IMG/VR virus record: IMGVR_UViG_3300048582_000022
Coordinates: 1 to 23,670 of that record
DNA length: 23,670 nt
Origin: a virus
Direction: 5' to 3' (one strand)
In this document: one piece after another, positions 140 to 23,670 of the stretch
Numbering within the stretch: the first letter of the stretch is position 1
How the letters are laid out: every line of letters begins with the position of its first letter
The notes under the pieces: model-generated
What the model saw: only the letters and a program-made list of their open reading frames with translations
What the model was told of the DNA's origin: nothing
The model's database searches: none
Program-made: the position numbers and the translations under genes

Positions 140-361
140 CTAACCAGCGCAGGCGGCGTCGATCAGCGTGATAAGCTGGAAGCCCGCCATCAGCGCCCGG
201 TCGTCTTGGGTGTCCACCAAGGCCGCCGAAAGATCGGCCCGCGCCTGCCGCGTCTCTTCGCAGATAACAGCACCGGAAACCGGGGGCGGCTCATTTGGTG
301 TTTGGGTCGCGGGAACGCAGGCGCTCACGCATAGCGCCAAGATCGGCGGCAGCTTCCACAT
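140..361 (-). CDS. Outer-membrane spanin (Rz1-like lipoprotein)
   Basis: A 73-residue lipoprotein. It is predicted to be the outer-membrane half of a two-component spanin, which fuses the two host membranes in the last step of lysis. The start is the ATG at 361, preceded on the minus strand by AAAGGA; longer upstream in-frame extensions lie inside the neighbouring gene. Residues 1-14 form a short signal peptide ending in a lipobox V12-S13-A14-Cys15, so Cys15 would be acylated. A Pro-rich stretch follows (TPNEPPPV), as is usual in Rz1 proteins. A second Cys (near residue 34) and one near the C terminus could make disulfides. The first 71 nt overlap the end of the inner-spanin gene in another frame, which is the 'overlapping' spanin architecture. 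The call rests on lipobox, size and position after a holin and endolysin. Sequence similarity to a named family is not recognised. Confidence 0.72.
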   Translation of the reverse strand: MWKLPPILALCVSACVPATQTPNEPPPVSGAVICEETRQARADLSAALVDTQDDRALMAGFQLITLIDAACAG

Positions 362-524
362 TGCGCATCCTTTCGCGGGTGGCATCTGCCCCGGCCCTTT
401 CGCGGGCCAGGGCATCGAACTTGGCGTTCTCGACAAGCGCGTCCTCGTAATCGCGCTGCATCTTCTGGTCGTGCAGGTATTCACGCAGCGCGGCGAATAG
501 GGCTGAGAAGAACGCGCGCCACAT
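291..524 (-). CDS. Inner-membrane spanin candidate (Rz-like)
   Basis: A 77-residue protein starting at the ATG at 524, one base after the holin stop (TGA-C-ATG), so it is probably translated by coupling. Residues 1-17 (MWRAFFSALFAALREYL) are a short hydrophobic or amphipathic segment that could anchor it in the inner membrane. The remainder is charged and predicted helical, rich in Ala, Glu and Arg, compatible with a periplasmic coiled coil. It ends in a very polar tail (RLRSRDPNTK). The lipoprotein gene at 140-361 begins inside it in another frame, which is the strongest support for an Rz/Rz1 pair. The oddity is the short hydrophobic segment, only about 11-13 residues and shorter than a normal membrane helix. 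It could therefore be peripheral, or another lysis accessory protein. Confidence 0.6.
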   Translation of the reverse strand: MWRAFFSALFAALREYLHDQKMQRDYEDALVENAKFDALARERAGADATRERMRNVEAAADLGAMRERLRSRDPNTK

Positions 525-525
525 G

Positions 526-732
526 TCAGCCGATCTTCTTCGTCGCGGTGACGCGGCCCCAGATGGCAAGCAGGCCGCCGACCAGGGTGATGGCCTCGCC
601 AACAAAACTGGTCAGTGCCACTTGATCTTCTGCGGTGATGGTATAGCCGACCATTGATGCGACAACGGACAGAACGACAATGATGCCGCCCCAGACGGTT
701 TTGGACGCAAGCAGTCCTTTGGTTTCTTCCAT
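526..732 (-). CDS. Holin, two transmembrane helices
   Basis: A 68-residue protein with two hydrophobic segments: about residues 11-30 (KTVWGGIIVVLSVVASMVGY) and 43-61 (FVGEAITLVGGLLAIWGRV). They are separated by a short acidic loop (TAEDQ), and the ends are charged (MEETKG and TATKKIG). Size, two helices and the position directly after the endolysin fit a small class II-type phage holin, which would form inner-membrane holes at the timed end of infection. The start is the ATG at 732, with GAAGGA nine bases upstream on the minus strand. The 119-base spacer before it contains a small hairpin (824-843) but no convincing promoter. The stop is one base before the inner-spanin start. Confidence 0.8.
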   Translation of the reverse strand: MEETKGLLASKTVWGGIIVVLSVVASMVGYTITAEDQVALTSFVGEAITLVGGLLAIWGRVTATKKIG

Positions 733-3444: not shown

Positions 3445-4521
3445 TTACATCTCCGCATTGGCGCTGTAGACCGTGATAAAGCTGACGGTCCCGGTTGCGG
3501 TTGTCTGCGCGGTCGCCCGAAAACCATCCGCGCCGATAAACTCGGCATAGGGGGTGCCGACCGAGATGATTTCATCGTCAAAAAGCCGGGTGACGGTCGG
3601 GGCAACCCGCTTCTGCGTGGCGAAGCTGACAACCGAACCGATGAAGCGCCCGATGGTCGCGCTTTCGCCAATGACGCCCGCCCGAAGGTTCTCAAAATAC
3701 CGCTGGCAGTGCGCCAGTTCTTCGCTGAACGTCAGGCGCTCAAACGGGGTCGCGGTTTCGCCAAGTTCAAGCTGCACGTCTGTGAAGGTGCCGCCGGTAA
3801 AGCGCACCGTGACATCCGTGTCGTAGGGCAAGCCGAAGGTGGCTTCCTTTGCCCGTGCAATGCCGTTGACCGTGCATGTCGCCGTGCCGGTCCAGTTGAT
3901 CACATAGGTGCCACCCTCGATGTTGCGCCCCTCAATCTCCTGCTCCACGCCGCCAGCCGGGGCCGTCATGGTGCGCCGCGCTTCCGTGCCGATAAAGGTC
4001 AGGCTTTGCCCCGAGGTGACAACCCGCCAGCGGTCGAGGGTGTATTGGTTCGCCGCGCCCGTCGCCGTGCCGCTGACATAGCCCCGCGCGTTGACCCGGC
4101 CTTGCCCGTTCATGATCCGGTTGCGGCCTGCAAGCTGCGTGTTTGCCGTTGCCATGGACACAGCTTCGATAGCCGCCTGCACGTCCGTCGCTGGCACTTC
4201 CGCTGTCGGTGAAAAGCTGATCTGCGAAGCGCCGGATCCGTTTGCCTGCACCAAAGATACGGGGTCCAGGGTGTAGAGCGTCACATCGTCCGACGTGGTG
4301 ACAACCACCTTGGCCGCCGTTGCCGTGACGTAGCGTTGCGGGAAAATGCCGCTGGCGTCCGCAATGATCGGGTTGGCCGCTGGCACCACCCCGGCAAGGT
4401 CGGAAAACACGTCCAGAAGCGTCGCCGTGCCGGTCTGATAAACGGTCATTTTCGCGCCCGGCACGGTGTAGCCGTTCAGGTCAAGGACGCGGCTGGGGTT
4501 GCCGATGATCTGGTTTGCCAT
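3445..4521 (-). CDS. Tail fibre / tailspike-like protein with N-terminal virion-binding domain
   Basis: A 358-residue protein. Residues 1-95 resemble the N-terminal virion-attachment domain of many podophage tailspikes, with the pattern GYTVPGAKMTVYQTGT at 17-32, a VFSD element and NPIIADASGIFP at 50-61. Residues 101-121 (ISFSPTAEVPATDVQAAIEA) are another common fibre linker. From 132 on (GRNRIMNGQGRVNARG, YTLDRWRV) to TPFERLTFSEELAHCQRY at 258-275 is the carbohydrate-binding-like fibre domain seen widely in phage fibres. The C terminus (about 277-358) is a separate, probably variable tip. The start is the ATG at 4521. The plus-strand promoter at 4515-4543 overlaps this start codon. It is probably the fibre attached directly to the tail. 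Confidence 0.82.
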   Translation of the reverse strand: MANQIIGNPSRVLDLNGYTVPGAKMTVYQTGTATLLDVFSDLAGVVPAANPIIADASGIFPQRYVTATAAKVVVTTSDDVTLYTLDPVSLVQANGSGASQISFSPTAEVPATDVQAAIEAVSMATANTQLAGRNRIMNGQGRVNARGYVSGTATGAANQYTLDRWRVVTSGQSLTFIGTEARRTMTAPAGGVEQEIEGRNIEGGTYVINWTGTATCTVNGIARAKEATFGLPYDTDVTVRFTGGTFTDVQLELGETATPFERLTFSEELAHCQRYFENLRAGVIGESATIGRFIGSVVSFATQKRVAPTVTRLFDDEIISVGTPYAEFIGADGFRATAQTTATGTVSFITVYSANAEM

Positions 4522-4543
4522 TGGGGGGAGTTTCCTCTATGAT
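4515..4543 (+). promoter_or_regulatory. Sigma-70-like promoter for the plus-strand membrane protein
   Basis: Plus strand: -35 TTGCCA (4515-4520), 17-base spacer, -10 TATGAT (4538-4543). Each box differs from consensus at one base and the spacing is ideal. The expected transcription start is near 4550, about 15 bases before the ATG at 4565, with GGAGG (4556-4560) between. The -35 box overlaps the start codon of the divergent fibre gene. Confidence 0.72.
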
Positions 4544-4564
4544 AGCGGCCCGATTGGAGGCCAC

Positions 4565-4756
4565 ATGGACCCGCGTTTCTTGCCGTTTCAGATTGCCGCC
4601 GGGCTGCTCTTGGCAGCCGCCGTGCTTTGGATGATGCGGATGGGGATAGCGATTTACCGGAACAACGCCGGGGTGAGGGGCTTGTTTGGTGGCGCTATGT
4701 TCGTCGGGGGCATGGCCCTTGGGTGGGCTGTTGTTTTAGCAGGGTTCGGCGCTTAG
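4565..4756 (+). CDS. Small two-helix membrane protein, autonomous 'moron' candidate
   Basis: The only plus-strand gene I can support. It encodes 63 residues from the ATG at 4565. GGAGG lies four bases upstream, and a near-consensus promoter sits at 4515-4543. Two hydrophobic stretches are clear: about residues 6-31 (FLPFQIAAGLLLAAAVLW and on to IAIY) and 40-62 (LFGGAMFVGGMALGWAVV and on). A basic loop (YRNNAGVRG) joins them, suggesting two membrane helices with a cytoplasmic loop. Its stop overlaps the stop of the convergent ejection gene (TTAG at 4753-4756). The gene fills exactly the gap between two late genes and has its own expression signals, which is the definition of a moron. Possible roles are superinfection exclusion, lysogenic conversion or an accessory lysis function. 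None can be shown from sequence. No family is recognised. Confidence 0.75.
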   Translation: MDPRFLPFQIAAGLLLAAAVLWMMRMGIAIYRNNAGVRGLFGGAMFVGGMALGWAVVLAGFGA

Positions 4757-6549
4757 GGCCGGGCCAGCGCGTTCCGTGCGTCTTCGGTGAACGGGATCAG
4801 GCCCGCTGCCGTTGCCGTGCCGATCCGCGACGTTGCCGGGTTCACCAGTTGGTTGGCTAGGTAATTCTGCACCGGGCCAGACATGCGGATTGCGCCAGAG
4901 ATCGCAGGCAAGGCAAGCCCTGCCATTGCCCCGATAGGCGCGCCCCAACCGCCCATGCCCGCGCCGATGCTTGCACCGATGGCTGCAGGAAGCGAACCAG
5001 CCGGGAGCATCGCGCGGATGCCCGCCGGGGTGCCAGAGTTGGGCAGGGCTTCCATGACTTCGCCACCGGCCCGCGCCAGTGCGCCAAGATCGCCACGCTT
5101 GCCGCGCGCATAGGATGACGCGCCCTGCTGGATGACGGAAGCCCGCACCCGCGCGGGGGAAAGCAGGCCGTCGCCTTCACGCAGGGCTGACTTCTGGATA
5201 GCGAGGAAGTTGCGCCACTCGCCCCGCGCCGTTGCCAGCCGCGCCACATCATCCGCCCGGCCCGCTGCGTTGAGCGAGGTTGCCAGCATGTCGTCAATGG
5301 TCTCCAGCGCCATGCGGGCTGCGTCACGGGTTGCCGCATCCGCGCTGGTGGTTAACTTGGAAAGGCTCGATCGCCAAGTGTTGACCGTTGAAGCCGGGAT
5401 CGTATTCCCGCCCCGGAAAGCGTTGGTCACGTCCTTGAAGATGGAACTCACTAGTGGGGCTTGGTTGCCGGTCGGGGCGAGGCTCTTGTATTCGGCAACC
5501 GCCTTTGAAAGCGCCGTGATGCTTTGGCTATCCGGCGTCACGTCGACACCGCGCGTCACGTCATCAAAGACCGCGCCGATGCGGGTTGCCGCTTCGTCCA
5601 GCACTTCCGGGGTTGCGCGCTTTGCGTTGATGCCTGCTGTTTTCAGGACCGCCGCCGTAAAGGCTTCCTGCTGTTCCACGATCAGCCGCTCACCGCCTGC
5701 CGTCAGCCCTTCCTTGCGGCGCAGGGCCTCGCTGCCGACCCGTTGCCCCGCCGTGACAGGAACGCCGAAGTCATCAAGGACGGATGCCAGCTTCAGCCGC
5801 TCGGGATCAGCGCCTCCGTAGGGGCTGACGACCTTTGCCGCGCCCTTGGCCGCCAAGCCGGGCAGGATGCCCCCTGCAAGCGCGCCTGCGACCCGTGCAG
5901 CCCCTTCGTAAGCGGTGCCTTCTGTGGCCTGCCCTGCGGCCTCTGAGGCCACGCCGGGGACAACGCCAAACCGGGCCAGGTTGGCGGGCGACATGCCGCC
6001 AAAAGCCGCAGCGCCCGGCAGGAACTCGCCAACCGTGCCAGCGTATTGCCCGGCGGTTGTCTGGCCCTTGTAATCGGTCGCGCCGCCTGTTGCCCTGGAC
6101 AAGTTGGCGACCATTGCGCCGCTTGAAAGGTTGCTTTGCGGGGCCTGCCAATCCTGCGGGATGACCCCGGCCTTTTTGCCAGCATAGGTCACGCCAGCGT
6201 CAAGCAGGTCGCCGACCGTGCCGGGCAAGCCTGCCAAGCCCGCAACGCCGCGCGCCACGCCAGCCGCCCCGGCCTTTGCAACGTCATTGACGCCGCGCCC
6301 GAACCGCTCGCCCGCGCTGTCCACGCCATCGTTCGGATCGCCGATCAGGTTGTCATACAGCGCCTGCCCCATGCCGCGCTCTGGCGGGGGCGGGTTGCGC
6401 GTCATGTCCGACAGGCTGGCAAGCCCTTCGGTCATGGCTTGGGATTGGCCGCCGGTCTTGAAGCGGGCAAGTGCCTTCTTCATGACCTCTGGCGAAGTCC
6501 CCTCGGGGAACTCGGCAATCGTGCCGTCTGGCAGTTCGACCTCGATCAT
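4753..6549 (-). CDS. DNA-ejection / internal virion protein (P22 gp16 position)
   Basis: A 598-residue protein, close to the size of P22 gp16 (about 609). It is the last of the ejection genes, as gp16 is in P22. Residues 1-30 (MIEVELPDGTIAEFPEGT and on) are an N-terminal element I recognise from many phage internal and ejection proteins. It is followed by Ala/Gly-rich helical segments, for example 91-125, and a strongly hydrophobic Gly/Ala stretch near 530-570 (IGASIGAGMGGWGAPIGAMA). Both could enter the host membrane during DNA delivery. The middle part (about 250-470) is charged and helical. No lytic motif is visible. The start overlaps the preceding gene as ATGA. The stop overlaps the stop of the plus-strand gene. 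Function is inferred from layout, not strict homology. Confidence 0.68.
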   Translation of the reverse strand: MIEVELPDGTIAEFPEGTSPEVMKKALARFKTGGQSQAMTEGLASLSDMTRNPPPPERGMGQALYDNLIGDPNDGVDSAGERFGRGVNDVAKAGAAGVARGVAGLAGLPGTVGDLLDAGVTYAGKKAGVIPQDWQAPQSNLSSGAMVANLSRATGGATDYKGQTTAGQYAGTVGEFLPGAAAFGGMSPANLARFGVVPGVASEAAGQATEGTAYEGAARVAGALAGGILPGLAAKGAAKVVSPYGGADPERLKLASVLDDFGVPVTAGQRVGSEALRRKEGLTAGGERLIVEQQEAFTAAVLKTAGINAKRATPEVLDEAATRIGAVFDDVTRGVDVTPDSQSITALSKAVAEYKSLAPTGNQAPLVSSIFKDVTNAFRGGNTIPASTVNTWRSSLSKLTTSADAATRDAARMALETIDDMLATSLNAAGRADDVARLATARGEWRNFLAIQKSALREGDGLLSPARVRASVIQQGASSYARGKRGDLGALARAGGEVMEALPNSGTPAGIRAMLPAGSLPAAIGASIGAGMGGWGAPIGAMAGLALPAISGAIRMSGPVQNYLANQLVNPATSRIGTATAAGLIPFTEDARNALARP

Positions 6550-7790
6550 TCCAATTCCCCGGTTCCAGCGTTGAATTTCAGGCGGCGCGCGCCGGTCTCC
6601 GGGGCGGTTGTAGGCGCGCTGTCGGATCGCGTTTCTGCGAAAATGCGGTCCCCAGCCTCGGGGCCGTGGATGACGCGCAACAGCGTTCTTTCGTAGTCCT
6701 CAAGATCGCGCAGGAATGTCGGGCTGTTCTGGTTAAGCGCGCCCGCCTTGTCCTGAATGACCTTCATTTCCGGGGCGGTAAGCGCGCCAAGGCCGGTTGC
6801 GCCGGTCGGGGATGCTTCCCGCATGGCTTGCAGCGTAGTGGTTGCGGCATTGGCGCGCAGCACGTCAATCTGGCGCTCCACTTCGGCGCTGTCCGTGTAG
6901 GGGATGTTCGCAACTAGGCTTGCGCCCAAGCCGCCAAGGTTCCGCTTAGAAGCCGCTTCCCGCGCCCGCGCCGCCGCCGTGGTGATCGTGTCGGTTGCAA
7001 CTGTATTCGCGCCCGCCGCGCTTGCATCCGCTGCGCTGGTGTCCTCGGGGCCGCCAGGGATGGGGACCATACGGTAGCCAGCGGGGCTGGTCGGATCGAC
7101 AACGGCAGCGAAGCCTTGCGGGATTGACCCGATTTCAGTTTTCGGCCCCGATGATCCACCGACATTGACAACCGTTTCCGGCGTCCTTGCCGTGCCTTGG
7201 GGCAGGATGCCAGCCTTCACGTCTGCCGCCAGCTTGCCCTCGGCCGAAAGCGGCTCCGGCCCGGCGTTCATCTTGAGGATTTCCGCCACGCTCATGAACT
7301 GCGCAGCCAGCACTTCCCGGTTGTCAAACTGCCCCACCATTTCAGGCCGCCCGCTTTGCACCATCAGCGCGTCAAAGGCTTCCGGCGTCGGGGCCGCAAG
7401 GGCCTGCTTGATGCCAGCCTCAAGGGCCGCCGCTTCCTGCGCCGCTTGCTCTGCGCTCAGGCTCTTGGCGTAGGCCTCGGCCTCGCGCTGCGTTGCCGTG
7501 TCCAGCGCGGCCATTTTCTTCGCCGTGAAGTCCATGTCTTGCCGGGCCGACTGCACCCCGAGGATATTCTGCTGCGTCCCAAGTGCGGCGTTTGGGTCCA
7601 TGCGCGCCAAGGCGTTCAGGGCGTTCTGATCACCGGCCATGATTCGCGCGCCCTGATCCTGGTAAAGCGCGGCAAGGGCGTTCTGCCGGTTCAGGTTGAT
7701 CTGGCCTTCCGCCGCCACTCGGCCACGGTCCATCGCGCCCATGATGTCCGGCGTCTGGCCCGCAAGGATGATGTTCGGGTTTAGCGCCAT
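6546..7790 (-). CDS. Internal virion / DNA-ejection protein (P22 gp20 position)
   Basis: A 414-residue, strongly helical, Ala/Gln-rich protein without membrane segments. Residues 1-180 are an extended helical region (for example QNALNALARMDPNAALGTQQ). Residues 195-260 are Pro/Gly-rich and probably flexible. Residues 275-390 are helical again with acidic clusters. Helical, Ala/Gln-rich internal proteins of this size lie next to the gp7- and gp16-like genes in P22-type phages and are ejected with the DNA. GAGG upstream of the ATG at 7790 supports the start, three bases after the lysozyme stop. The stop overlaps the next start as ATGA. No motif identifies the family by itself. Confidence 0.6.
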   Translation of the reverse strand: MALNPNIILAGQTPDIMGAMDRGRVAAEGQINLNRQNALAALYQDQGARIMAGDQNALNALARMDPNAALGTQQNILGVQSARQDMDFTAKKMAALDTATQREAEAYAKSLSAEQAAQEAAALEAGIKQALAAPTPEAFDALMVQSGRPEMVGQFDNREVLAAQFMSVAEILKMNAGPEPLSAEGKLAADVKAGILPQGTARTPETVVNVGGSSGPKTEIGSIPQGFAAVVDPTSPAGYRMVPIPGGPEDTSAADASAAGANTVATDTITTAAARAREAASKRNLGGLGASLVANIPYTDSAEVERQIDVLRANAATTTLQAMREASPTGATGLGALTAPEMKVIQDKAGALNQNSPTFLRDLEDYERTLLRVIHGPEAGDRIFAETRSDSAPTTAPETGARRLKFNAGTGELE

Positions 7791-7793
7791 GGG

Positions 7794-8399
7794 TTAGCCT
7801 CGCATGGAAAGGGCATTGCGCCCGCGATTGACGTTGAAGAAGGCGCGGGGGTCTTGCCGCATGTCCACCATCTGGAATGGATCCGGCGCGGCCAGGGCGT
7901 TCTGTTGCGGGGCTTGGGGTTGGGCCGTCATGCCCGCCAGCGCGTTGCCGGTGGCTGCGGGGGTCGATGGCATAGCCCCGGCTGGCTGGTATGCCTTGCC
8001 GCCGAGGTAGGCCGCTTCCCGCCGCGCCCGATGGCTTTCGGCGGGCCGCAGAAACTTGTTGACGATTGCCGCCGCCGCCGTGCCGGTATCGCCCGCGCTG
8101 GAAATGGCGTTCCATGCAGCGGCTTCCGGCCCCTGCAATTCGGTCATCAGGAAGTCCATTTGCAGGTTGGGATCGTCCACCGGAACGCCGCGCTCAGCTG
8201 CGAAAGCCTCAAGCGCGCGACGGCGCGGGCCGGTCCACTGCATCAGGCCGAAACCGCCCCGCGATCCGGGGACAATCGGCGCGATTTCGTTGATGCCGGG
8301 ATTAAGCCCGCTTTCGTCGCGGGCGTTCAGCGCGAAGGCTTCGGCAATGTGTGGGGCAACGCCGCGCTGGACTAGCCCGTCAATGAACCAGTCAGCCAT
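7794..8399 (-). CDS. Virion-associated lysozyme (phage tail lysozyme type)
   Basis: A 201-residue protein. The first 130 residues resemble phage tail lysozymes (Phage_lysozyme2-like). RDESGLNPG at 27-35 carries the probable catalytic Glu29, and GGFGLMQWTGPRRRALEAFA at 48-67 is the characteristic second motif. It would locally open peptidoglycan during DNA delivery. The C-terminal 70 residues are Ala/Pro/Gln-rich and likely disordered or a virion-packing tail. The start is the ATG at 8399 (MADWFIDGL), overlapping the upstream stop by one base (TAATG). Longer in-frame extensions lie inside the preceding gene and are rejected. Its place among ejection genes, far from the lysis cassette, argues for entry rather than release. 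Confidence 0.85.
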   Translation of the reverse strand: MADWFIDGLVQRGVAPHIAEAFALNARDESGLNPGINEIAPIVPGSRGGFGLMQWTGPRRRALEAFAAERGVPVDDPNLQMDFLMTELQGPEAAAWNAISSAGDTGTAAAAIVNKFLRPAESHRARREAAYLGGKAYQPAGAMPSTPAATGNALAGMTAQPQAPQQNALAAPDPFQMVDMRQDPRAFFNVNRGRNALSMRG

Positions 8400-9358
8400 T
8401 ACCGCCCCCCGCCGAACCAAGGCGCAGTCGCGCCGCCAGTTTGCGACCTGTTCAGGTTGCTTTGATAGTTCCACGCGCCGAGGACGTTCTGAATACCGCC
8501 GCTCAAGGCGTTGGCCTGCCCGATAGCCCCGGCGGATCGCGCGTTGCCGATGTTGCCGAATGCGTTGGAAATGTTCCCCGCCGCCGCTTGGCTGGCCGCG
8601 CCTGACATGGTGGCCGCGCTCATGCCGGTGTCGGCCCGCGCGCCAAGGCGTGACAAATAGTTGCCGTATTCGTTGGATCCGTAGTCCTGCCCGAATTTCA
8701 GCGAATCCCGCAAGGCAGCGCCAGACAACAGGCCGCCCCGCGCCGCCGCCGAAGATTGCAAGGCGTCCATGCCGGTTTTCATGCGGAAGTCAAAGCCCGG
8801 CGTCTTGGTGTATCCGCCGTAAGGCGTCCCGCCCGTGGTGTTGGCGTTGGCGTAGGCCTGCGCCTCTTCCATGGTGCCGAAGGTCTGGCCGCCAACCCGG
8901 AACATCGGCCCCGCATTGCCAAAGCCGCGATTGCCGCCCGCCATCTGCGCCCGCAGGGCTTCCTTTTGTTCGCGGATGTTGCCTGCACCTACGCCCGGAA
9001 CAAGGTTGTTGAGGAACAGATTGCCGATCCCCACGCCGCCGCCGGTTTGCCCCGGCCTGCCGATGGTCTGCCCGCCCGTCATGCCCACGTCGCCCGGCAT
9101 GATCGTTTCGATAGCCATTGGCGTCCCGCCAACCATCGGGCGCGCGGCAAGGCCCAGCTCGTAATCAAGCGCCTGCTGCGCCAGATTACCGCCCGTGCGG
9201 TAATTCGCCAGATCGTTGCGGATCAGGTCCCGCGTTTCGGTCTGAAACGCAATGTCACGGTTGGCCGCATCGGTCTGCGCCCGCGCCGCCGTCTTGGCCG
9301 CCCTGGATTGCCCAATGCCGCTGATAATGCTGCCGCCAACTGCCGCCGCTACTGCCAT
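8399..9358 (-). CDS. DNA-transfer / internal virion protein (gp7-like)
   Basis: A 319-residue protein. GGAGG five bases before the ATG at 9358 selects this start (MAVAAAVGGSIISG) over an ATG four codons upstream. The N terminus has a small hydrophobic Gly/Ala segment and then a helical Ala/Gln-rich region (about 20-65). The middle is Gly-rich. Residues from about 184 on contain the pattern TPGFDFRMKTGMDALQSSAA, then RGGLLSGAALRDSLKFGQDY, which I recognise from many podophage internal virion proteins. The C terminus is Gly/Asn/Ala-rich, ending GATAPWFGGGR. It is first in the ejection block, as gp7 is in P22. It overlaps the GNAT-like gene by ten bases. Confidence 0.75.
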   Translation of the reverse strand: MAVAAAVGGSIISGIGQSRAAKTAARAQTDAANRDIAFQTETRDLIRNDLANYRTGGNLAQQALDYELGLAARPMVGGTPMAIETIMPGDVGMTGGQTIGRPGQTGGGVGIGNLFLNNLVPGVGAGNIREQKEALRAQMAGGNRGFGNAGPMFRVGGQTFGTMEEAQAYANANTTGGTPYGGYTKTPGFDFRMKTGMDALQSSAAARGGLLSGAALRDSLKFGQDYGSNEYGNYLSRLGARADTGMSAATMSGAASQAAAGNISNAFGNIGNARSAGAIGQANALSGGIQNVLGAWNYQSNLNRSQTGGATAPWFGGGR

Positions 9359-9726
9359 TGTGGCCTCCATCCAACCATCACGACAGGCTCTGCCAGCGGC
9401 AGTGTCCCGTCGATTTCAAAGCCAATCCGGCGACACAGCGCCAGCATTGGCCGATTACTTGCCTTGACCCATCCGATAATGCGCTCGGCCCCGACCTCAG
9501 CCGCGTATGCCTGCAAGATCGCCACAGCGGCCCCATCTACACGCCTGACGCCCGGCAAGGCCCCGAGGTGGCCCATCCAGACGCCCGGCCACAGATGCAT
9601 GTGGAAAGCGCCGCACAGCCCGTCTAGCGTGCGGTAGTCCATCCAGTCGCCCAAGTCCCCGACTGCGCCTTGCGCGGGGTGCGTGAAGTATGGCGCAGCC
9701 TCTTGCGCCGTTAGCCGCTGGATCAA
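9349..9726 (-). CDS. GNAT-like (N-acyltransferase-fold) phage protein
   Basis: A 125-residue protein. I place the start at TTG 9726, which overlaps the upstream stop as TTGA. Upstream in-frame ATG codons lie inside the previous gene, and the next Met (in WMDYRT) would remove the first strands. The C-terminal part reads like the last motifs of the GNAT fold (GWVKASNRPMLALCRRIGF then MVGW). A central VWMGHLGALPGVRR fits the strand and loop before the acetyl-CoA site. A full Q/RxxGxG/A signature is not obvious, so it may be a structural use of the fold or an enzyme modifying a virion or host target. GNAT-like genes occur in other phage structural operons. Its role is unknown. The Shine-Dalgarno match is weak, consistent with coupling. 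Confidence 0.62.
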   Translation of the reverse strand: MIQRLTAQEAAPYFTHPAQGAVGDLGDWMDYRTLDGLCGAFHMHLWPGVWMGHLGALPGVRRVDGAAVAILQAYAAEVGAERIIGWVKASNRPMLALCRRIGFEIDGTLPLAEPVVMVGWRPQWQ

Positions 9727-22775: not shown

Positions 22776-23495
22776 TTACAGGTCAAAGCCCTCTTGCACG
22801 GGCGCTTGGCGGGCTTGCGGGATCAGCAAGTCAGGCTGGCGGGCGGCCTCGTCCACGCGCTTGCAGGCGATGGCGAAATAGTCCGGGTCCAGTTCAATGC
22901 CGGTGCCGTTGCGGCCCATGCGTTGGCAGGCGACTAGCGTGGTGCCGCTGCCCATGAAGGGGTCTAGGATGGTCTGAGCGTTGGGAAGGAAGCCGAGGCA
23001 CCATTCCATCAAGGCGACTGGCTTCTGGGTGGGGTGAAGGCGCGTCTTTTCTTTGGCGTGAAGCCCAGAACCGTTGTAAGTAAACTGCTTCACCGCGTCA
23101 CCAGGCAGGCTTGACCATGCAAGCTCGCCATCGCCAAAGCTTGGCATTGTCTGGCATTTGTCCCAAAACAGCCATTTGCCTTGCGGCGGCAAAAGGTCTG
23201 CGAAAAATTGGCCGCCCCAGATGATATGAGCATCAGCTGAATCGGTGATCAGGTTAAAGGCGTCAACTGGCGGTCGGTCGGCATCCCATCCGCCAGCATA
23301 TCGCTTGACGTGCCGTGCGCGCCGAACTCCATCGCCAAAGCCTGAAAAGCCGCCAGTTCCCACGCCGCGATCCATCTTGATTCCATACGGCGGGTCAGTC
23401 ACCACCGCGTCAAACCGGCCCAACAGCGGCATGACTTGCAGGCAGTCGCCAAGGATCAGCCGCTGGCCGCCAATGCGCTCTTCCTTGATGATCAT
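22776..23495 (-). CDS. DNA methyltransferase, N6-adenine/N4-cytosine type (beta class)
   Basis: A 239-residue protein. The catalytic motif IV DPPY is at 34-37 and the AdoMet-binding motif DPFMGSGTT at 178-186. The catalytic motif comes first, which is the beta-class order. HPTQKPVALMEW at 154-165 and GTGIELDPDYF at 197-207 are further family motifs. It would methylate a specific site in phage DNA, most likely adenine N6, and so protect against host restriction or mark DNA for packaging. The ATG at 23495 overlaps the upstream stop as ATGA; a GTG five codons earlier is also open. No restriction enzyme gene lies beside it. The 114 bases after its stop hold no gene I can support. Confidence 0.92.
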   Translation of the reverse strand: MIIKEERIGGQRLILGDCLQVMPLLGRFDAVVTDPPYGIKMDRGVGTGGFSGFGDGVRRARHVKRYAGGWDADRPPVDAFNLITDSADAHIIWGGQFFADLLPPQGKWLFWDKCQTMPSFGDGELAWSSLPGDAVKQFTYNGSGLHAKEKTRLHPTQKPVALMEWCLGFLPNAQTILDPFMGSGTTLVACQRMGRNGTGIELDPDYFAIACKRVDEAARQPDLLIPQARQAPVQEGFDL

Positions 23496-23670
23496 TCCAC
23501 CCGCTCCCACATCGTCGTGTGTTGTCCCACGCGCCGGAACTTCACCCGGCCCTCGTCGCCAAGCTGCGAAAGCAAATCGGTCGCGTAGCTTTTGCCGAAC
23601 CCAAGGCGCGCGGCCACTTCCCGGCTTGTTGCAGGCAGTAGCGCGAGTATCTGCTCCTTGCGATCAGCCT
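23492..23670 (-). CDS. Partial winged-helix / HTH-like protein (3' end only)
   Basis: An open frame enters at the right edge and ends in TGA 23492-23494, overlapping the methyltransferase ATG. The 58 visible residues read like a helix-turn-helix with wing: KEQILALLPATSREVAARLG, then SYATDLLSQLGDEGRVKFRR and HTTMWERVE. The pattern (first helix, SREVAARLG turn helix, recognition-like helix with LLSQLGDEG, then a strand wing) is like a MarR/ArsR-type winged helix. The 5' end lies outside the window, so total size and start are unknown. It may regulate the phage genes upstream of the late promoter. Confidence 0.6.
   Translation of the reverse strand, partial: ADRKEQILALLPATSREVAARLGFGKSYATDLLSQLGDEGRVKFRRVGQHTTMWERVE

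What the first reader, a model, noticed from the sequence alone, without database searches (positions are those of the whole stretch)
4515..4756. Autonomous plus-strand membrane-protein gene inside a fully minus-strand late operon
Within 242 bases there is a near-consensus promoter (TTGCCA-N17-TATGAT), GGAGG at the right distance, and a 63-residue two-helix membrane protein. Its stop overlaps the convergent neighbour's stop. The promoter's -35 box overlaps the fibre start codon. All other genes in the window point the other way. This is a classic moron layout: a gene expressed independently of the lytic programme, possibly from a prophage or early in infection. Its small size and two helices fit superinfection-exclusion or anti-phage membrane proteins, but no known family is recognised. 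Its transcript would also run antisense into the ejection gene.
Basis: partly seen in the sequence, partly recalled or inferred. Interest (0 to 1): 0.72.

Follow-up and report, generated by a model that had tools for sequence, protein, structure and literature searches.

The report
Hairpin membrane gene in sieA-like slot
A tiny, genuinely conserved membrane-protein gene sits back-to-back with the gene for this phage's DNA-ejection protein, in the position where Salmonella phage P22 keeps its superinfection-exclusion gene sieA, and a search of related phages shows that this position is a recurrent slot for small membrane proteins that probably stop other phages from injecting their DNA.

Summary
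Window 4565-4756 (+) encodes a 63-residue two-helix protein with a 10/12 sigma70-like site and GGAGG upstream. Its stop overlaps the convergent ejection gene's stop by 4 nt. It is a real gene: four homologues in IMG/VR phages (62-70% identity in three, 41% in the fourth) occupy the same place, and dN/dS is 0.12-0.31 among the close ones. No known family matches.

Following it outward changed the picture. I collected phages sharing the neighbouring tail-lysozyme ejection protein. A convergent ORF with two or more predicted helices lies at the stop of the last ejection gene in 12 of 32 loci, but at only 2 of 407 other gene ends (p=2e-13). With gap-matched controls and the index family removed, it is 8/17 against 1/58 (p=1e-5). 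The proteins form at least two sequence families plus singletons, and occupied slots go with integrase genes (7/8 against 3/13, p=0.007).

Salmonella phage P22 keeps sieA, which blocks DNA injection through the ejection proteins, in the same position and orientation. No homology to SieA was found. Best explanation: an unrelated, smaller SieA-like exclusion protein aimed at the ejection conduit (about 0.55). Expression, membrane location and exclusion are untested.

The parts
4515..4543 (+). sigma70-like promoter candidate: TTGCCA (4515-4520), 17-nt spacer, TATGAT (4538-4543); -35 overlaps the fibre start codon
   Evidence: 10/12; weak alone, 0.5% of random 130-mers; 9/12 in L002, 8/12 in L003 and L004, none in L012
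4556..4560 (+). ribosome-binding site GGAGG, 4 nt from the ATG
   Evidence: GGAGG also kept in L003 and L004
4565..4756 (+). slot gene: 63-aa two-helix membrane hairpin, proposed superinfection-exclusion protein (RNN family)
4577..4636 (+). predicted transmembrane helix 1 (about residues 5-24); the first 15 residues are invariant in the four close homologues
4637..4690 (+). basic loop (about residues 25-42, net +3, conserved RNN motif), predicted cytoplasmic by the positive-inside rule
4691..4747 (+). predicted transmembrane helix 2 (about residues 43-61)
4753..4756 (.). 4-nt overlap of the two convergent stop codons (TTAG); a 4-nt overlap recurs with slot genes of other families (L047, L049, L050, L053, L063, L090)
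4753..6549 (-). last DNA-ejection protein (598 aa), the proposed partner or target type
   Evidence: phrog_26400 DNA ejection protein, E=1.3e-11
6546..7790 (-). second ejection-type protein (414 aa)
   Evidence: phrog_2534 'released from the phage upon host infection', E=3.4e-4
7794..8399 (-). ejection protein with tail-lysozyme domain (7965-8399), used as bait for the survey; the ORF caller extends it to 8474
   Evidence: PF18013 Phage_lysozyme2 E=9e-22
8399..9370 (-). gp7-like DNA-ejection protein
   Evidence: phrog_598, E=4.5e-28
3445..4521 (-). tail fibre gene, the other border of the slot
   Evidence: phrog_4492 tail fiber protein, E=4.6e-30

Best explanation
The gene is one occupant of a sieA-like slot between the last DNA-ejection gene and the fibre gene, transcribed against the late operon. 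It makes a small inner-membrane hairpin with both ends in the periplasm and a basic cytoplasmic loop. In a lysogen (or early in infection) the protein sits in the inner membrane and, when a related phage infects, interferes with assembly or opening of the conduit that the incoming ejection proteins build there, so DNA entry fails: superinfection exclusion by the same principle as P22 SieA but with an unrelated, much smaller protein. Shown: gene reality, position, hairpin prediction, slot recurrence, association with integrase. Inferred: membrane location and topology, expression in the lysogen, the target, and the exclusion phenotype.
For: Conserved and under purifying selection. Same slot and orientation as P22 sieA; [quoted passage not shown] PMC10883804). 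A convergent ORF with 2 or more helices lies at the last ejection gene in 12/32 loci against 2/407 other gene ends. It co-occurs with integrase (7/8 against 3/13, p=0.007). The L012 phage with a homologue has an integrase, an S24-type repressor and a Cro/YdaS-like gene. Two sequence families share the basic-loop hairpin design. In L003 the fibre differs but the small gene and ejection gene stay together. L051 has an HTH regulator beside its slot gene, as P22 has mnt.
Against: No sequence similarity to SieA or any defence family. SieA is 162-164 aa with three helices, this is 63 aa with two. Promoter evidence is modest, and weak for other slot genes. No integrase in the window or in the three close relatives, all short fragments. 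Slot-gene presence could follow lifestyle or lineage for other reasons; the loci are related by descent, so p-values are optimistic.
Confidence: 0.55

Rival explanations
1. Self-protection rather than exclusion: the hairpin binds the phage's own newly made ejection protein in the producing cell and keeps it from inserting in the inner membrane before packaging, like an immunity protein.
For: Tight physical linkage to the ejection gene and slot content that mostly follows ejection-protein similarity.
Against: It is not in the late operon and points the other way; many homologous ejection genes have no slot gene, so it is not generally needed; occupancy goes with integrase.
Confidence: 0.15
2. 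A lysogenic-conversion membrane protein with a function unrelated to DNA entry (for example altering host physiology or membrane stress) that merely uses a permissive insertion site.
For: Moron-like slot with mixed cargo, including lipoproteins and an HTH regulator.
Against: The recurrent selection of two-helix hairpins exactly at the ejection-gene end is not expected of random cargo.
Confidence: 0.17
3. A lysis component (holin, antiholin or pinholin) displaced from the lysis cassette.
For: Two-helix small membrane protein.
Against: A full lysis cassette lies elsewhere on the minus strand: holin-like ORF 526-732, M15 endolysin 852-1238 and nested Rz/Rz1-like ORFs 140-605 (by eye). No holin family hit. 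The gene is not in late orientation.
Confidence: 0.05
4. The plus-strand transcript matters as antisense RNA to the ejection gene; the protein is incidental.
For: Convergent overlapping stops; no terminator above chance.
Against: Clear protein-level selection and unrelated proteins of like design in the slot.
Confidence: 0.04

Closest known systems
SieA of Salmonella phage P22 and P22-like prophages (PHROG phrog_7745; PMC10883804)
   Same: Position between the last ejection gene and the tailspike/fibre gene, opposite strand to the late genes, multi-spanning membrane protein, phage with P22-type coat protein and ejection proteins; several very divergent sequence types at one site
   Different: No detectable sequence similarity; 63 aa with two helices against 162-164 aa with three; the FxRYPxEAxxFNK motif is absent; slot is 4-nt overlapped with the ejection stop; no function tested
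Imm of phage T4 (small inner-membrane protein blocking DNA injection; from general knowledge and PMC11436027)
   Same: Small membrane protein thought to stop DNA transfer; a second gene (sp) blocks the tail lysozyme, which resembles the lipoprotein neighbours seen in several slots
   Different: T4 Imm lies in an early region of a lytic myovirus; sequence relation was not tested one to one
HK97 gp15 and Tuc2009/TP-J34 exclusion membrane proteins (as summarised in PMC10883804)
   Different: Act on long-tailed phages through the tape measure; different genome position

Membership tests
P22 SieA family | gene between last ejection gene and tailspike/fibre, opposite strand to late genes | tested here: met
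P22 SieA family | sequence similarity to SieA (phrog_7745) | tested here: not met
   hhalign E=0.23 over 7 columns; no phrog_7745 match, while P22 SieA itself hits it at 9e-109
P22 SieA family | three transmembrane helices, about 160 aa | tested here: not met
   63 aa, two helices
P22 SieA family | own promoter | tested here: inconclusive
P22 SieA family | blocks DNA injection; escape mutations in ejection genes | not testable with these tools
   needs a phage-host pair
P22 SieA family | carried by a temperate phage | tested here: inconclusive
   window fragment has no PF00589 hit; the phage with the distant homologue (L012) is temperate
Moron (autonomous accessory phage gene) | opposite orientation to flanking late genes | tested here: met
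Moron (autonomous accessory phage gene) | present or absent in relatives with flanking genes intact | tested here: met
   e.g. L055 has a homologous ejection gene (41% identity) and no slot ORF; met only at this distance, not among the four close relatives, which all have it
Moron (autonomous accessory phage gene) | own promoter and terminator | tested here: inconclusive
   promoter candidate; terminator-like sites not above chance
Phage holin | member of a holin family or of the lysis cassette | tested here: not met
Known anti-phage defence families (PADLOC) | profile match | tested here: not met

The most novel reading that the evidence does not exclude
The slot is a general ejection-immunity locus of P22-type phages that carry a tail-lysozyme ejection protein. 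Its two-helix proteins descend from one ancestral convergent gene that has diverged beyond recognition under an arms race (hence the shared 4-nt stop overlap in unrelated-looking families), and the lipoproteins that often lie next to them form a second layer that inhibits the incoming lysozyme domain, a pairing that would resemble T4 Imm plus Sp.
Probability: 0.15. Interest if true: 0.8.

Novelty: new variant of a known kind. Interest (0 to 1): 0.62.

Why it matters
SieA is the only system described in the papers I read that stops a short-tailed phage at the ejection conduit, and it was reported from enterobacterial P22-like phages. If the slot found here does the same job, exclusion aimed at ejection proteins is widespread, is done by proteins as small as 46-75 residues that annotation pipelines miss, and can be found by position rather than by sequence. 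It would also turn the open question of how SieA copes with very diverse ejection proteins into a comparative one, with many slot/ejection pairs to swap.

Tried and rejected
Single-protein scans with the ejection and fibre proteins found nothing; profiles were needed. The only genome-contig hit (L013, Streptomyces) was judged spurious on reading the DNA: it is not a start-to-stop ORF in a phage context (by eye). No match in annotated phages or plasmids, Pfam, PHROGs, NCBIfam, PADLOC or PDB beyond weak hydrophobic hits (TctB 2e-4, GspN 0.04). Fold searches gave only generic hairpins, none with E below 0.001. The RNN family could not be joined to the other slot family by profile comparison. Holin, antisense-RNA and chance-ORF readings were rejected for the reasons given under rivals. 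dN/dS for the second family was saturated at synonymous sites and gave no ratio. Slot promoters in the wider set were not enriched (combined p=0.1).

Full report
1. The observation. The bases described are there. The plus-strand gene runs 4565-4756, 63 codons, with GGAGG four bases before the ATG and a TTGCCA-17-TATGAT site at 4515-4543. Its TAG overlaps the TAA of the convergent ejection gene by four bases. The promoter match is not remarkable in 20 kb (3 found, 3.5 expected), but as the best match within 130 bases upstream of this ATG it is in the top 0.5%. The fibre gene starts within the -35 box. All recognisable genes are on the minus strand.

2. The gene is real. A viral-contig scan found three further phages with 62-70% identical proteins, and a fourth, 41% identical, turned up next to a related ejection gene (L012). 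In all of them the gene lies on the opposite strand, directly at the stop of the ejection gene and upstream of the fibre-side gene. The first fifteen residues are invariant in the four close members. dN/dS is 0.12-0.31 for every pair among those four, and third codon positions change most.

3. What it encodes. Hydropathy and an AlphaFold2 model (mean pLDDT 91) give two helices joined by a short turn. The loop carries net +3 in this protein and the ends are neutral, so by the positive-inside rule the loop should be cytoplasmic and both ends periplasmic. No profile library or structure library places it.

4. Neighbours. The minus-strand genes next to it are a DNA-ejection set: 8399-9370 (phrog_598), 7794-8399 with a Phage_lysozyme2 domain (PF18013, 9e-22), 6546-7790, and 4753-6549 (phrog_26400). 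The coat protein is of the P22 type (PF11651). In the three close relatives the small gene keeps company with the ejection gene (48-67% identity) while the fibre varies widely, 24% to 52%, and in L003 the fibre N-terminus is unrelated. So the gene is linked to the ejection module, not to the fibre.

5. The same place in P22. In P22 the gene after ejection gene 16 and before tailspike gene 9, on the opposite strand, is sieA, with its own promoter. [quoted passage not shown] escape mutations lie in ejection genes 16 and 20, and sieA-like genes in other prophages occupy the same position (PMC10883804). The window protein is not a SieA homologue by profile comparison.

6. A slot, not a single gene. 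Using the tail-lysozyme domain as bait I fetched 64 viral contigs and mapped genes downstream. I defined the last ejection gene by a rule (first plus-strand gene of at least 495 aa within the four genes after the domain gene) and asked at every plus-strand gene end whether a convergent ORF of 40-160 aa with at least two predicted helices stops there. It does at 12 of 32 last-ejection ends and at 2 of 407 others (p=2e-13). The fair objection that most other genes abut the next gene was tested: among ends followed by a gap of at least 120 bases, and without the index family, it is 8 of 17 against 1 of 58 (p=1e-5). The loci share ancestry, so these p-values overstate independence, and the rule was written after I had seen gene maps; the contrast is nevertheless large.

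7. Who sits in the slot. The RNN family (window, L002, L003, L004, L012); a second family with an A/G-N motif in helix 1 (L011, L049, L053, L065, L076, L080, L099, and a four-helix relative in L064); and singletons such as L096, L079, L046, L063. An unannotated 64-aa ORF in Bradyrhizobium prophage ppBeUSDA76-2 also fits but has no known relative. Both main families have hairpins, mostly with a positively charged loop. They cannot be joined by profile comparison. A 4-nt stop overlap recurs across families (window, L047, L048, L049, L050, L053, L063, L090), which suggests either one old gene that diverged or a constraint on the junction. Relatives with homologous ejection genes but no slot ORF exist (L052, L055, L056, L074, L082).

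8. Link to lysogeny. Among scored contigs of at least 33 kb, 7 of 8 with a two-helix slot gene carry an integrase, against 3 of 13 without (p=0.007). The L012 phage carries an integrase, an S24-type repressor and a Cro/YdaS-like gene. Several slot-positive contigs bear IMG identifiers of isolate genomes, that is, are probably prophages (my reading of the identifiers). L051 has an HTH regulator beside its slot gene, as P22 has mnt. The window itself is a fragment, and no integrase is present in it.

9. Mechanism. Taken together, position, orientation, membrane hairpin design, tie to the ejection genes and to integrase favour a prophage-expressed exclusion protein that disturbs the ejection conduit at the inner membrane. 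I put this at about 0.55. The steps shown are gene reality, position, recurrence and association; expression, location, target and phenotype are inference. It works like SieA in this proposal; it is not a member of the SieA family, because sequence and size were tested and not met.

10. Novelty. I found no paper describing this slot outside enterobacterial P22-like phages, within an open-access library only. I therefore call it a new variant of a known kind.

Noticed in passing
L012 7967-8389 (-), L046 12526-12885 (-), L044 13544-13903 (-), L050 12493-12825 (-), L079 13110-13544 (-), L011 9105-9503 (-), L057 13057-13440 (-): Lipoprotein-like genes (signal peptide with Cys) often sit in the same antisense slot; L012 and L050 look related to each other, as do L011 and L079. 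No Pfam match. Possible second exclusion layer against the lysozyme-bearing ejection protein.
   Followed up: partly
L051 12244-12642 (-): HTH_3 regulator next to the slot membrane gene, reminiscent of mnt beside sieA in P22.
   Followed up: no
L014 7489-7683 (-) (OP596614.1 33630-33824): Unannotated convergent 64-aa two-helix ORF overlapping the end of the ejection gene in Bradyrhizobium prophage ppBeUSDA76-2.
   Followed up: partly
window 140-605 (-): Nested ORFs that look like an Rz/Rz1 spanin pair (second ORF with lipobox-like LALCVSAC), next to a holin-like ORF 526-732 and an M15 endolysin 852-1238: a complete lysis cassette.
   Followed up: no
window 22776-23510 (-) and L022 10826-11542 (-): An N6/N4 DNA methylase gene shared by the window and the temperate L012 phage, a second sign that the two phages are related.
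   Followed up: no
L003 3835-4932 (-): Fibre gene with an N-terminus unrelated to the window's but like that of L011, a fibre-module swap beside an unchanged slot and ejection gene.
   Followed up: partly
L064 12364-12801 (-): A 145-aa four-helix version of the slot protein, perhaps a duplicated hairpin.
   Followed up: no
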